A stretch of 64,000 nt of DNA from Candidatus Poribacteria bacterium. Lineage in GTDB: Bacteria > Poribacteria > WGA-4E > WGA-3G. The notes beneath the pieces are model-generated. The model searched no databases. It was not told the origin of the DNA and saw only the letters and a program-made list of their open reading frames with translations. Location of the stretch: contig RKRR01000140.1 in the NCBI GenBank assembly GCA_007571305.1, forward strand, positions 25,476 through 89,475. The letters are read 5' to 3'. The position numbers and the translations under genes are program-made. This document shows, in pieces, positions 1 to 5,437 of the stretch. Within the stretch, counting starts at the first letter, position 1. Each line of letters opens with the position of its first letter.

Positions 1-1139
1 GAAACACCGTGGCGAACAAGTTGGATGCGAAAAGCGATCTCTACGTCTACTTCTATCTTCACGGCTTATCGCTCCTTAACCCGAAAGGCACGTTCTGTAG
101 CATTACGTCTAACTCGTGGTTAGATGTTGGGTATGGTAAGAACCTTCAAGCATTTCTCCTCAAAAAGTGCCATCTGAAACTCGTTTTGGACAATGCTGCA
201 AAACGTTCCTTCAAGGGCGTAAATATAAATACTATTATCACCCTTACCTCTGCTCCGAATGAAACTGGCGAAGCGAACGAACAACACATCGTACGTTTTG
301 TCAACTTTACCGTGCCGTTTGAGGCGATTCTGGATCCGATTATCTTCTATGAAGTTGAAACTGCGACAGTTCGAACGCGCACCCCAGAACACCGCATTCA
401 TCCGAGCGTGCAGGAAGACTTGTTAACCTCCGGCATAGGTGAAAAAGGGAAGTATGCTGGTGACAAGTGGGGCGCGAAATACCTCCGTGCCCCGGATATC
501 TATTGGTATCTGTTGGAAAATTATCACGATAAGTTAATCCGCGTGGGAGATGTCGCTGATACACCCAGAGGGTTTACAACTGGTGCCAACTCGTTCTTTG
601 TCCTTGATTCCCAAACAATTTCAACGTGGGGTATTGAAGCGGATTTCTTGTCCCCTGTTATCAATAGTCCGAGGGATGTAAAAAGTCTTTTAATTGCCCC
701 CAACCAATTGCCTTATTCACTCTTTATGTGCTCAAAGCGAAAAAGTGCTTTACGGGGAACGGCTGCTTTAGAGTACATTAAATGGGGGGAGTCACAGTCA
801 TTTCACCAGCGTTCAAGTATCCGAAGCAGAAGACTGTGGTACGGTATAAGGAAACGTCCACTCCCACCGCTTACTTTCCCTCAGTTGGTCGGTTCGACAG
901 CGAAAACAACGTATGCCCCTAAGGGGTGCTTAGCAATTGACAATTTTACGGAAATTCATCCCTCTTCTGCTTTGAGTGTGCCGCTTTGTTTATCTTTAAA
1001 TTCTACTGTTTTCCAACTCATGCTAAATCTCAGTGGTTGTGCGAATAGAGGATACGGCTTTTTGAAGATGCAAACCTCTGACCTATCAAACCTACTATGC
1101 GTCAATCCAGAAATACTTAACATAAGTGGGGGGGGGTAA
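1..1139 (+). CDS. Eco57I/type IIG-like N6-adenine DNA methyltransferase, C-terminal part (5' end outside window; frame ends at a poly-G tract)
   Basis: Frame is open to the left edge; 'KSDLYVYFYLHGLSLLNPKGTFCSITSNSWLDVGYGK' resembles the NPPY-downstream region of Eco57I-like MTases, followed by a TaqI-like specificity region. Confidence 0.75.
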   Translation, partial: NTVANKLDAKSDLYVYFYLHGLSLLNPKGTFCSITSNSWLDVGYGKNLQAFLLKKCHLKLVLDNAAKRSFKGVNINTIITLTSAPNETGEANEQHIVRFVNFTVPFEAILDPIIFYEVETATVRTRTPEHRIHPSVQEDLLTSGIGEKGKYAGDKWGAKYLRAPDIYWYLLENYHDKLIRVGDVADTPRGFTTGANSFFVLDSQTISTWGIEADFLSPVINSPRDVKSLLIAPNQLPYSLFMCSKRKSALRGTAALEYIKWGESQSFHQRSSIRSRRLWYGIRKRPLPPLTFPQLVGSTAKTTYAPKGCLAIDNFTEIHPSSALSVPLCLSLNSTVFQLMLNLSGCANRGYGFLKMQTSDLSNLLCVNPEILNISGGG

Positions 1140-1311
1140 TCATGACCTCCTCGCCGCAGAAGACTGGGATGTACTCAACCCTTCACCCGAACGCAGGACC
1201 CTTGACAACATCATCTTTGATGTGCTACAATTAACCCAAGGTGAACGTGATGGAGTCTGTGAAGCTGTCATGGAGTTAGTAACAACCCGCCTCAGTAGGG
1301 CAAAAACCTGA
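1126..1311 (+). pseudogene. C-terminal tail of the same methyltransferase in another frame, separated by the (G)9 tract
   Basis: 'DWDVLNPSPERRTLDNIIFDVLQLTQGERDGVCEAVMELVTTRLSRAK' reads like the usual C-terminus of Eco57I-like MTases; with 8 G instead of 9 the two frames join. Confidence 0.65.
1128..1136 (+). repeat. Homopolymeric (G)9 tract at the methyltransferase frame break
   Basis: Direct reading: ...cataagt GGGGGGGGG taatcatgacc. Confidence 0.9.
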
Positions 1312-1337: not shown

Positions 1338-2378
1338 ATGATGAATACTGCCGATACTGAACGTGAATACTCAGACAATCAATTGGACAAAATTGAGACA
1401 TTGCTCTTACAGAGTGCCGAACTCCAACTACGAGGCGAGCAAAGATTCGGAAGGTTAGCAGAGACGGTCACAGAACTCGCTGAGAGCCAAGTGAAAAGCT
1501 CGCAATGGCAGGCAGAAAACCAAACACGATTCCAACAAATTGAGACAGCACAGACACGGACATCCGAACTCCAAGCAGAAATGGTAACCCAGATGGCAGA
1601 GATGGTCGCTCTTAATGCCGCGCGGGACACGCGGTTGACTCGGATTGAGGAGCGGCTTGAAGAGAGTGCCGTGCTTGATGCCAAACGTGATGTCCGTTTG
1701 GATAGAATTGAGGAATTACTTGTACAAACAGGGACTGCTGTTTCCCAACACGGGCAAATCCTCTCTAAACTCTCCGAAACTGTTTCGCAACAAGAACAAA
1801 TCTTATCTCAACATGGGCAAATCCTTGCCAAACTTTCCGAAACCGTTTCCCAACACGGGCAAATCCTTTCTAAACAAGAGCAAACCTTATCGCAACACGG
1901 ACAAATCCTCTCTAAACTCTCTGAAACAGTTGCCAAACAAGAGCAAACCTTATCGCAACACGAGCAAACGCTTTCCAAATACGGGCAAATCCTTTCTAAA
2001 CAAGAGCAAACCTTATCGCAACACGGACAAATCCTCTCTAAACTCTCTGAAACAGTTGCCAAACAAGAGCAAATCCTTTCTAAACATGAGCAAACGCTTT
2101 CCCAATACGGACAAATCCTTACCAAACAAGAGCAAACCTTATCGCAACACGGACAAACGCTTTCCCAACACGGGCAAATCCTCTCCAAACTCTCCGAAAC
2201 AGTTACCGAACTCGTCCAAACCGTTTCAGACTTGTCCCATAGCGTTTCTGAAGTGAAGGGCGCGCTCACCCCGTGGAAAATTATCATTGGCGGTATCGTC
2301 AGTGTTTGCCTCGCTATCATCTTGTCTGTACTCGGGACGAAAGGGTTAGAAGTGCTGGTAAAATTATTCACAGGGTAA
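1338..2378 (+). CDS. Heptad-repeat coiled-coil protein with C-terminal transmembrane helix
   Basis: 25 consecutive 7-aa repeats (LSQHGQI/LSKLSET/LSKQEQT types) followed by 'KIIIGGIVSVCLAIILSVLG'; stop is 2 nt before the helicase ATG. Confidence 0.85.
   Translation: MMNTADTEREYSDNQLDKIETLLLQSAELQLRGEQRFGRLAETVTELAESQVKSSQWQAENQTRFQQIETAQTRTSELQAEMVTQMAEMVALNAARDTRLTRIEERLEESAVLDAKRDVRLDRIEELLVQTGTAVSQHGQILSKLSETVSQQEQILSQHGQILAKLSETVSQHGQILSKQEQTLSQHGQILSKLSETVAKQEQTLSQHEQTLSKYGQILSKQEQTLSQHGQILSKLSETVAKQEQILSKHEQTLSQYGQILTKQEQTLSQHGQTLSQHGQILSKLSETVTELVQTVSDLSHSVSEVKGALTPWKIIIGGIVSVCLAIILSVLGTKGLEVLVKLFTG
1740..2264 (+). repeat. 21-bp (7-codon) tandem repeat array, 25 units
   Basis: Uninterrupted heptads from VSQHGQI (1740) to VSEVKGA (ends 2264). 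Confidence 0.9.
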
Positions 2379-2380
2379 TC

Positions 2381-5300
2381 ATGCCACACGACATCATTGA
2401 CAACCGAAACGAAAAACTGATTGACCACGTCAACCTTATCTTAGACTCCACCGAGCGGGCCCGGTTCGCTGTCGGCTACTTCTTTCTTACCGGTTTCACA
2501 AGCATCGCAAAAGAACTTCGAAATCTGACCGAACTTCGACTCCTCATCGGTAACACCAGCACCCGCGAAACCATAGAGCAACTCGCCGAAGGATATAGAG
2601 AATTATCCGCTATTGAAAACGTTACTGAAAATATCAGTTATTCCAATCGCGTAACACGCAAAACACGTACCGCCGAAACCGCTGAAAACCTCAGGGCATG
2701 CATCCAATCTATGCCACAGACAGATGAATCCGAGCAGATCATCCGAACCTTAGCCGATATGGTTGCCACCGGGAAGTTGAAAGTCAGGATATACACGAAG
2801 GGTAGGCTTCACGCCAAGGCCTACATTTTTGACTACAAGCAAGGCACCTATGAAACCGGCACCTCCATTGTCGGCTCATCTAACCTTACCCTCGCCGGTT
2901 TGACCAGCAATACCGAATTGAACGTCGTTGTCTCTGGCAATGCCAATCAGAAACAACTCCGAAAATGGTTCGATGAATTGTGGGATGAAGCCGATGACTT
3001 TGACAAGACCTTGATGGAGGAGATGCAAACCTCTTGGGCACTCGCCCCTGTTCGCCCGTATGACATCTACATGAAAACACTCTATGAATTGGTTAAGGAA
3101 CGACTTGAGCGGGATGAGGACAGCCTTCCTCCTGCCGCCGATCTGATGGATCAATTGGCTGACTTCCAACAGGTCGCCGTGTGGCAAGCCATTAAAATTA
3201 TTAATCAATATGGCGGCGCGTTTGTCTCGGATGTCGTCGGATTGGGAAAAAGTTACATCGGCTCCGCAATCGTCAAATACTTTGAGCACGTCGAAAACGC
3301 CCGTCCCTTAATCTTCTGTCCCCCCGCCCTCATCCCGATGTGGGAACGGTACAACGAATTTCACCATCTTAACGCCCAAGTAATTTCCAGCGGGATCCTC
3401 AGCGGTGATGCAGAAAATGCCCGACAACTCCTCTTTGAACACTACGAAAACCGGGATTTTGTCCTTGTTGACGAAAGCCATAATTTCCGCAACCCGGGGA
3501 CTCAACGTTATGGAATCTTGCAAGAATTCCTAACAACGGGGGATAAAAAGAGTTGTTTCCTTACCGCAACACCACGGAACAAAAGTGCCTGGGATATCTA
3601 TCACCAATTTAAACTCTTCCATCCAGACGACGATACTGCCTTACCGCTTGAGCCTGCACACTTGCGGGAATATTTTCGCCACATCGAAAACGGCACCCGG
3701 GACCCACGCGTCCTTTTGCAGCACATCCTCATCCGTCGCACCCGAAACCATATCCTACGATGGTATGGATATGATGCAGAGACGCATGAGCCCGTCGACC
3801 CTACCGAATTTAGCGATTACTTAAACCGTCAACGGCACGCTTATGTCAGAATAGGTGACACACAACAATTTTTTCCACAACGCACCCTCAAGACAGTGGA
3901 ATATAGTATTGAGGAGACCTACCAAGGGCTTTATCAACAAATTCGGGAGCACCTCGGCACCGCAAAAACCACCACTGCTTCACAACTGACCTACGCACGG
4001 TATGGACTCTGGCACTACGTGAAAAAAGAAAAGCAAGGAATCGCGCCTTATCGAGATTTACAAAGTGCAGGCAAAAATCTGCGCGGTTTAATCCGCGTTC
4101 TCCTTTTCAAACGTTTTGAATCCAGTGTGTATGCCTTCAAACAGACGATCTCTCGGTTTTTGAACGTTCACACCCTGTTTCTCAACGCATTAGACAACGG
4201 CATCGTTGCCGCAGGTGAGGATGCCCAACAGATTCTCTACGATGCAAGGAGTACTGACGAAACCGATATCGATGCCGATGAACGCGACGTTCTTGACGAG
4301 CTGCAGAAACTCTCTGAGTCTTATGACATCCAAGATTTCAACCTTGAAGCGTTACGCGAAGACGTTCAGCACGATATCCAAGTCTTTACACATATTTTAG
4401 AATCCATCCAAAAAATTACCCCAGCAGCCGATGCGAAACTCCAAACACTCAAAAAATTGCTCAACACGAAACCCCTCTGCGACGGAAAACGCCTAATTTT
4501 CACTCGATACATTGATACAGCCGACTACCTCTACAGAAACCTAAAGACGGAAAACACGGATGTTATCTACAGCAGTAATAAAGATAAACAGAGAATCGTT
4601 GCACGCTTTGCGCCTAATGCAAATCCTGAACAGAGACGGAACTCTGATGAAAACGAACTCAACACACTCATCGCCACTGATGTTCTCGCGGAGGGATTGA
4701 ACCTGCAAGATTGTGGGATATTGGTCAACTACGACCTCCACTGGAATCCCGTCCGCCTCATTCAACGCTTCGGACGTATTGATCGAATAGGCAGCGAGTT
4801 TGAAAAAATTCACGGCTTTAACTTTCTACCCGAACTCGGTATTGAACGTAACCTCGGCTTGCAAGAAACACTCCGAAATCGAATTCAAGAAATCCACGAC
4901 ACGATTGGGGAAGATGCCGCAATTCTCGACAACACTGAAGAACTCAACGAAGAGGCGATGTACGCAATCTATGAGCAGGATAACGCACAACTCAATCTTT
5001 TTGAAGAGATCCAGGAAACCGGTATGAGTTTTATCGAAGCGGAAGAGATATTGCGACAAATCAAACGGCAAGATTCAGCGGAATATGAACGCATTGCAAA
5101 TCTGAGGGACGGTATCCGTACGGGTATTCAGGCGGACACAAAGGGCACTTACGTTTTCTGTCGTTTGGGCTCGTTCCAGCAGCCATGTCTGTTGAATGAA
5201 AAAGGATACATGGTTACTACAGATTCAGCGGAGATTCTCCAACGTCTTCAATGTGATCCTGAATTAGAAGGGAAACCGGTTCCACCTGAACATAATACAC

Positions 5301-5437
5301 GCATTACGAAACAGCAAAAAGACTTCGCAGCACGGAATAGAAATCGAACCGTTTTTTCAGTACGTCAGTTAACGTCCGCGCAGAGATACATCCGAAAAGA
5401 GTTGAGACTCCTTAGCAGCACATCGAAGGATACATAG
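2381..5437 (+). CDS. PLD-like nuclease domain + SNF2/DEAD-like helicase (restriction/defence-type)
   Basis: PLD motif 'LHAKAYIF...GSSNLT'; Walker A-like 'DVVGLGKS', 'LVDESHNFRN' box, 'LIATDVLAEGLNLQ', 'QRFGRIDRIGS' motif VI; ATG at 2381. Confidence 0.85.
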   Translation: MPHDIIDNRNEKLIDHVNLILDSTERARFAVGYFFLTGFTSIAKELRNLTELRLLIGNTSTRETIEQLAEGYRELSAIENVTENISYSNRVTRKTRTAETAENLRACIQSMPQTDESEQIIRTLADMVATGKLKVRIYTKGRLHAKAYIFDYKQGTYETGTSIVGSSNLTLAGLTSNTELNVVVSGNANQKQLRKWFDELWDEADDFDKTLMEEMQTSWALAPVRPYDIYMKTLYELVKERLERDEDSLPPAADLMDQLADFQQVAVWQAIKIINQYGGAFVSDVVGLGKSYIGSAIVKYFEHVENARPLIFCPPALIPMWERYNEFHHLNAQVISSGILSGDAENARQLLFEHYENRDFVLVDESHNFRNPGTQRYGILQEFLTTGDKKSCFLTATPRNKSAWDIYHQFKLFHPDDDTALPLEPAHLREYFRHIENGTRDPRVLLQHILIRRTRNHILRWYGYDAETHEPVDPTEFSDYLNRQRHAYVRIGDTQQFFPQRTLKTVEYSIEETYQGLYQQIREHLGTAKTTTASQLTYARYGLWHYVKKEKQGIAPYRDLQSAGKNLRGLIRVLLFKRFESSVYAFKQTISRFLNVHTLFLNALDNGIVAAGEDAQQILYDARSTDETDIDADERDVLDELQKLSESYDIQDFNLEALREDVQHDIQVFTHILESIQKITPAADAKLQTLKKLLNTKPLCDGKRLIFTRYIDTADYLYRNLKTENTDVIYSSNKDKQRIVARFAPNANPEQRRNSDENELNTLIATDVLAEGLNLQDCGILVNYDLHWNPVRLIQRFGRIDRIGSEFEKIHGFNFLPELGIERNLGLQETLRNRIQEIHDTIGEDAAILDNTEELNEEAMYAIYEQDNAQLNLFEEIQETGMSFIEAEEILRQIKRQDSAEYERIANLRDGIRTGIQADTKGTYVFCRLGSFQQPCLLNEKGYMVTTDSAEILQRLQCDPELEGKPVPPEHNTRITKQQKDFAARNRNRTVFSVRQLTSAQRYIRKELRLLSSTSKDT

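What the first reader, a model, noticed from the sequence alone, without database searches (positions are those of the whole stretch)
1128..1136. Poly-G tract splits an Eco57I-like methyltransferase: candidate ON/OFF phase switch
The MTase frame ends in GGG GGG GGG TAA (nine G), while the conserved-looking C-terminus (LDNIIFDVLQLTQGERDGVCEAVMELV) lies in the frame reached if the tract had 8 or 11 G. Long poly-G tracts in restriction-modification genes are a known slipped-strand phase-variation mechanism. A homopolymer assembly error is the main alternative.
Basis: partly seen in the sequence, partly recalled or inferred. Interest (0 to 1): 0.7.

Follow-up and report, generated by a model that had tools for sequence, protein, structure and literature searches.

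The report
Poly-G on/off switch in methylase gene
A run of nine G's in a DNA-methylase gene of an uncultured Poribacteria bacterium is very probably a genetic on/off switch, and it belongs to a genus-wide set of such G-runs in defence and surface genes that, unusually, sit beside one shared DNA motif.

Summary
The tract is real: nine G at 1128-1136, followed at once by TAA, splits an Eco57I-type methyltransferase from its conserved last ~57 codons; 8 or 11 G would rejoin them. Comparison supports reversible switching over error or decay. A related species has 9 G + TAA at the same place, with a 1-nt indel after it. The segment after the tract stays under purifying selection (dN/dS 0.16; 0.025 between two copies that are both out of frame). 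Fifteen in-gene tracts, nearly all in identifiable R-M methyltransferases, split 5 in frame, 10 out. All nine G>=9 runs in this genome, and about 106 of 271 in the genus, lie just 3' of TACTTA (reversed control 1). They occur in both orientations inside methyltransferase genes, and upstream of surface-protein and defence genes. I found no such shared flank in the phase-variation papers searched. Caveats: this MTase carries a second frame break (1-nt deletion, non-repeat, 1.6 kb upstream of the window), so a G change alone may not restore the full protein here; population tract-length variation could not be tested. Known kind (cf. Campylobacter cj0031c), new lineage, with an unexplained cis motif as the new element.

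The parts
3..1139 (+). C-terminal part of the Eco57I-family methyltransferase ORF (ORF begins at contig C184 about 23.84 kb, outside the window), ends in GGG GGG GGG TAA
   Evidence: PF07669 E 7.1e-13 on this piece; Type IIG and Type II MTase models in PADLOC
1114..1127 (+). flank motif TACTTAACATAAGT, shared by the G tracts of the genus
1128..1136 (+). G9 tract, proposed slippage site
1137..1139 (+). TAA stop reached with 9 G
1138..1311 (+). conserved MTase C-terminus (57 codons + stop), in frame only with 8 or 11 G; under purifying selection
1338..2378 (+). neighbouring ORF: repeat-rich coiled-coil-like protein with a hydrophobic C-terminal stretch (judged by eye)
2381..5437 (+). neighbouring ORF: PLD + SNF2 helicase, likely effector partner of the MTase (inference)
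   Evidence: PLDc_2, Helicase_C, RE_NgoFVII; HKD+Snf2 model E 1.5e-77

Best explanation
The G9 run is a slipped-strand phase-variation tract in a restriction-modification methyltransferase of a Poribacteria genome. With 9 G, translation stops at TAA right after the tract and the last 57 codons are lost (OFF); a change to 8 or 11 G puts them back in frame (ON at this site). It is one of a genus-wide set of contingency loci. Inside genes, tracts with a recognisable carrier lie in R-M methyltransferases. Between genes they lie mostly 150-430 nt upstream of surface-protein, R-M or DUF4007 genes, where length may change expression. Shown: tract, frames, orthologous tract, selection on the out-of-frame segment, shared flank motif. 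Inferred: slippage in living cells, the effect on methylation, the role of the motif. In this assembly the gene has a second lesion, so this copy may be partly decayed.
For: Orthologue in G002 has G9 + TAA at the same position, also out of frame but with an indel after it; a second G002 copy has G8. Post-tract segment dN/dS 0.16 between G000 and G002 and 0.025 between the two G002 copies, all out of frame; type III Mod post-tract segment 0.21 between two out-of-frame copies, with an in-frame orthologue in G000. In-gene tracts: 5 in frame, 10 out; carriers are R-M MTases. Tract lengths 8-17 over many genomes. Other ORFs of the window are intact and other homopolymers break nothing.
Against: No read-level or strain-level tract variation could be measured. 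A second, non-repeat 1-nt deletion upstream breaks this copy. Most other relatives of this MTase have no tract.
Confidence: 0.78

Rival explanations
1. Homopolymer assembly or sequencing error: the true tract has 8 (or 11) G and the gene is simply intact at this point.
For: The source is a 200-contig assembly whose reads are not available; a G9 run alone is within chance.
Against: An independent genome has the same G9 + TAA context out of frame; A/T runs of 7-8 elsewhere in the window break no ORF; many in-gene tracts in many assemblies show all frames.
Confidence: 0.1
2. Pseudogene: the MTase is permanently broken and the G run is just one of its lesions.
For: A second 1-nt frame break upstream in this genome; an own Type ISP gene with a decayed tract and three stops shows that such genes do decay.
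Against: dN/dS 0.16 after the tract, 0.11 before it, 0.19 before the second break; no stop inside the 929-aa frame.
Confidence: 0.2
3. TACTTA-N-G(n) is a portable DNA element with its own function: a site recognised by a protein that nicks, binds or recombines there, so that the adjacent G run is made or kept hypermutable. An addition to, not a replacement of, phase variation.
For: 9 of 9 G>=9 runs in this genome have TACTTA 4-24 nt upstream (chance about 3e-24); about 106 of 271 in the genus against 1 for the reversed pattern. It occurs in sense, antisense and intergenic settings. In four orthologous MTase pairs the codons CTT-AAC-ATA are unchanged although 27-56% of the neighbouring aa-identical codons differ. 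Two G002 MTase copies change from about 52% protein identity to about 98% at the motif.
Against: No acting protein identified; Y1 (HUH) transposases do not track with the motif. The breakpoint is a single case. Many intergenic copies are homologous leaders, so part of the sharing is common descent.
Confidence: 0.35
4. Programmed ribosomal or transcriptional slippage on the G run gives some full-length protein without any change in DNA.
For: Long G runs can slip at RNA level (general knowledge); it would also explain selection on the out-of-frame segment.
Against: In-gene tracts of all lengths and frames occur, 8-14 G, including in-frame ones, and antisense (C-run) placement is as usual as sense placement.
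Confidence: 0.06

Closest known systems
Campylobacter jejuni cj0031c, phase-variable Type IIG R-M enzyme (PMC4889913)
   Same: nine-G tract inside an R-M methyltransferase gene whose length joins or splits two frames
   Different: different phylum; here the tract is near the 3' end and has the TACTTA flank; switching not measured; nuclease fusion not established
Type III mod phasevarions and other SSR-switched methyltransferases (e.g. PMC6265453, PMC3498834)
   Same: simple-repeat length controls an R-M methyltransferase frame; the genus has type III Mod genes with tracts
   Different: G homopolymers with a common flank, in several R-M classes within one genome
Intergenic (transcriptional) repeat-mediated phase variation, as catalogued in Campylobacter (PMC6321876)
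   Same: homopolymer upstream of regulated genes
   Different: here many copies sit in a conserved leader with a terminator-like hairpin and the TACTTA motif; on the gene's sense strand the run is poly-C; no Rfam family matched
RepG/tlpB of Helicobacter pylori (PMC8295292)
   Same: a variable G repeat in a leader read as a regulatory signal
   Different: resemblance only; no trans-acting small RNA was looked for or shown here

Membership tests
Translational phase-variation (contingency) locus by homopolymer slippage | homopolymer inside the coding sequence that joins or splits two parts of one conserved protein | tested here: met
Translational phase-variation (contingency) locus by homopolymer slippage | tract length or frame differs between orthologues | tested here: met
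   this locus: 9, 9 and 8 G with different frame needs, all OFF; type III Mod: 10 ON, 9 OFF, 14 OFF
Translational phase-variation (contingency) locus by homopolymer slippage | out-of-frame part kept by selection | tested here: met
Translational phase-variation (contingency) locus by homopolymer slippage | reversible switching within a population | not testable with these tools
   needs reads
Eco57I-family DNA methyltransferase (PF07669) | family profile above cut-off with SAM-binding and NPPY motifs | tested here: met
   49.4 bits against 25.3, own locus found; DPACGSGSFL and NPPYVRQ in the translation
Type IIG restriction enzyme (MTase with fused nuclease) | nuclease domain in the same polypeptide | tested here: inconclusive
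   Type IIG models hit but no nuclease domain was identified; a PLD-SNF2 gene lies next to it
Phasevarion | methylation-dependent regulon switched with the MTase | not testable with these tools
   needs methylome and expression data
IS200/IS605-type element end | presence tracks with a Y1 (HUH) transposase | tested here: not met
   Y1_Tnp present in motif-free genomes and genus g20 as well

The most novel reading that the evidence does not exclude
Poribacteria use a portable cis element, TACTTA-N(8/13)-G(n), recognised at DNA level by an unidentified factor that keeps or makes the adjacent G run hypermutable, so that R-M, surface and other defence genes are switched by one sequence-directed system rather than by unrelated repeats.
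Probability: 0.22. Interest if true: 0.88.

Novelty: new variant of a known kind. Interest (0 to 1): 0.62.

Why it matters
Phase variation by simple repeats is known mainly from cultured host-adapted bacteria; the text search found no report for Poribacteria. A genus-wide set of G tracts in R-M and surface genes implies that these uncultured bacteria diversify phage defence and surface stochastically. The shared flank raises a directly testable question: can homopolymer instability be targeted by a neighbouring sequence? No flank motif of this kind turned up in the phase-variation papers searched.

Tried and rejected
Integron attC reading of ACTTAAC (fits RYYYAAC; no cassette array or partner site was looked for; left as a weak lead). 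IS200/605-type Y1 transposase acting at a hairpin: present in motif-free genomes as well. Long insertion carrying the motif: motif-free Type ISP orthologues have linkers of the same length or a few residues shorter, although the distant LlaGI linker is much shorter; the C184 linker is also about the same length with and without the motif. Rfam family: none. Sigma-70 promoter next to the tract: none above shuffles in two leaders. RNAalifold of 24 leaders supports only the terminator-like stem, not the alternative hairpins I had suspected. Virus origin: no motif match in IMG/VR. Plasmid homologues of the MTase all below 60% identity. Hairpin as the conserved feature: the second stem arm varies. 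No structure prediction was made; it would not bear on the switch.

Full report
Observation. Window 1128-1136 is nine G followed by TAA. The frame before it is the C-terminal part of an Eco57I-family methyltransferase that starts outside the window on the same contig. The conserved C-terminus lies one frame away and is reached with 8 or 11 G. G9 alone is not beyond chance in 64 kb.

Not just this genome. The MTase has long homologues; in those compared, apart from G002, the parts before and after the site are nearly always in one frame with an ordinary linker and no G run. A same-genus relative, G002, keeps TACTTAACATAAAT-G9-TAA at exactly this site, also out of frame, with one extra T after the tract, so its in-frame lengths are 7/10 rather than 8/11. 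A second G002 copy has 8 G, also out of frame.

Selection. The 57 codons after the tract show dN/dS 0.16 between this genome and G002. Between the two G002 copies they show dS 0.31 and dN 0.008, although none of the three assemblies has them in frame. The type III Mod genes L165 and L178, both out of frame at their tract, give 0.21 after the tract; the own orthologue L093 is in frame with 10. Segments that are out of frame in each assembly but kept by selection are what reversible switching predicts and what permanent loss does not.

The set. All nine G>=9 runs in this genome share a 5' flank TACTTA-N(8-17)-G. Given the frequency of TACTTA in the window, the chance is about 3e-24. In the genus, about 106 of 271 such runs have it, against one for the reversed pattern (these totals are my sums of the per-genome rows). 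Outside this family only one chance-like hit was seen, and within it genus g20 is almost empty. Two classes exist: a 14-nt class mainly inside genes (TACTTAACATAAAT) and a 19-nt class mainly between genes (TACTTA..TTGTAAAGT-like). Most further instances were collected with TACTTA in the search pattern, so only the nine of G000 and the G002 census are unbiased: in G002, 21 of 43 runs have TACTTA and at least 3 more a variant of it; most of the rest that were read are other inverted-repeat sequences or plain coding runs.

Carriers. In-gene tracts with an identifiable product lie in methyltransferases: Eco57I (this locus), an Eco57I+TaqI_C gene on C3 broken exactly at its poly-C, N6_N4/type III Mod genes, and a Type ISP gene; L160 is a weak Eco57I hit and L217 was not searched. 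An LRR surface protein ORF overlaps one more tract near its start (L201). Counting without L169 (unclear start), 5 are in frame and 10 are not, close to the 1:2 of random frames. In the G-strand-sense genes, one frame runs into TAA (or a like stop) directly after the tract. Intergenic copies sit mostly 150-430 nt upstream of a gene on the C strand: cadherin, fn3, LTD and autotransporter-like surface proteins, an N6_Mtase R-M gene, DUF4007-like genes in five genomes (one confirmed by Pfam). Many of these leaders share about 125 nt including a terminator-like hairpin. How tract length would act there is unknown.

The motif is not a peptide effect: it occurs with the G run on the sense strand of some MTases and on the antisense strand of others. 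In four orthologous MTase pairs the codons CTT-AAC-ATA are unchanged while only 44-73% of neighbouring aa-identical codons are identical at DNA level; two orthologues keep the motif although the G run is interrupted, and an own type III Mod-like gene keeps it with six G. In G002 the two MTase copies change from about 52% protein identity (to this genome's protein, against 71-78% for the other copy) to 98% identity to each other at the motif, and the similarity ends just past the stop codon. This may be gene conversion that starts there; it is one case. What the motif does is open; I give a dedicated slippage or maintenance element 0.22.

Caveat for this locus. Upstream of the window the MTase has a second break: relative to G002 one base is missing near L009:8830, in no repeat. 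An ATG lies at the junction. So in this assembly a change in G number alone would give at most an N-terminally shortened protein, unless that deletion is an error. Other ORFs in the window look intact and other homopolymers break nothing.

Known kind. The nearest described case is Campylobacter jejuni cj0031c, a Type IIG gene with a nine-G tract whose length separates two frames (PMC4889913). Campylobacter phasomes include intergenic tracts (PMC6321876). Only one paper in the library holds both 'Poribacteria' and 'phase variation', a single-cell methods review. R-M enrichment in sponge symbionts is reported (PMC5649159). That the genus is Candidatus Poribacteria rests on matching loci with named records: L032/L065, L033/L064, L036/L069 and L037/L066 give the same sequences at the junction.

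Verdict. An ordinary mechanism, well supported by comparison, in an unexpected lineage and with an unexplained shared motif. The window copy itself may be partly decayed.

Noticed in passing
L009:8205-8845 (contig C184 about 23.2-23.85 kb, upstream of the window): Second frame break in the same MTase: one base missing relative to G002 L084, not in a repeat; it separates about 210 N-terminal codons.
   Followed up: partly
window 1746-2190: In-frame tandem repeats (63/126-nt units, up to 94% alike) in the coiled-coil-like ORF between the MTase and the PLD-helicase; could vary in copy number.
   Followed up: no
L091, L092, L094, L123-L143, L151-L211 (intergenic copies): A conserved leader of about 125 nt with terminator-like hairpin, TAAGTA core and poly-C on the sense strand, upstream of surface and defence genes; no Rfam match.
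   Followed up: partly
L082 around 338-560 and L083 (G002): Two MTase copies in one genome are nearly identical from the motif to just past the stop codon and diverged before it: possible gene conversion or recombination boundary at the motif.
   Followed up: partly
L214, L215, L221, L222, L226, L227, L229 (G002): Other G>=9 runs belong to a dispersed inverted repeat of the type CCCCCC-TTATCA/TGATAA-GGGGGG.
   Followed up: no
L250 (G000 C167): Own Type ISP gene keeps TACTTAACATAAAT but its G run is interrupted and the gene has three in-frame stops.
   Followed up: partly
G000:C3:73795-73803 (L087): A second R-M gene (Eco57I + TaqI_C) is split exactly at a C9 tract with the same motif on the other strand.
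   Followed up: yes
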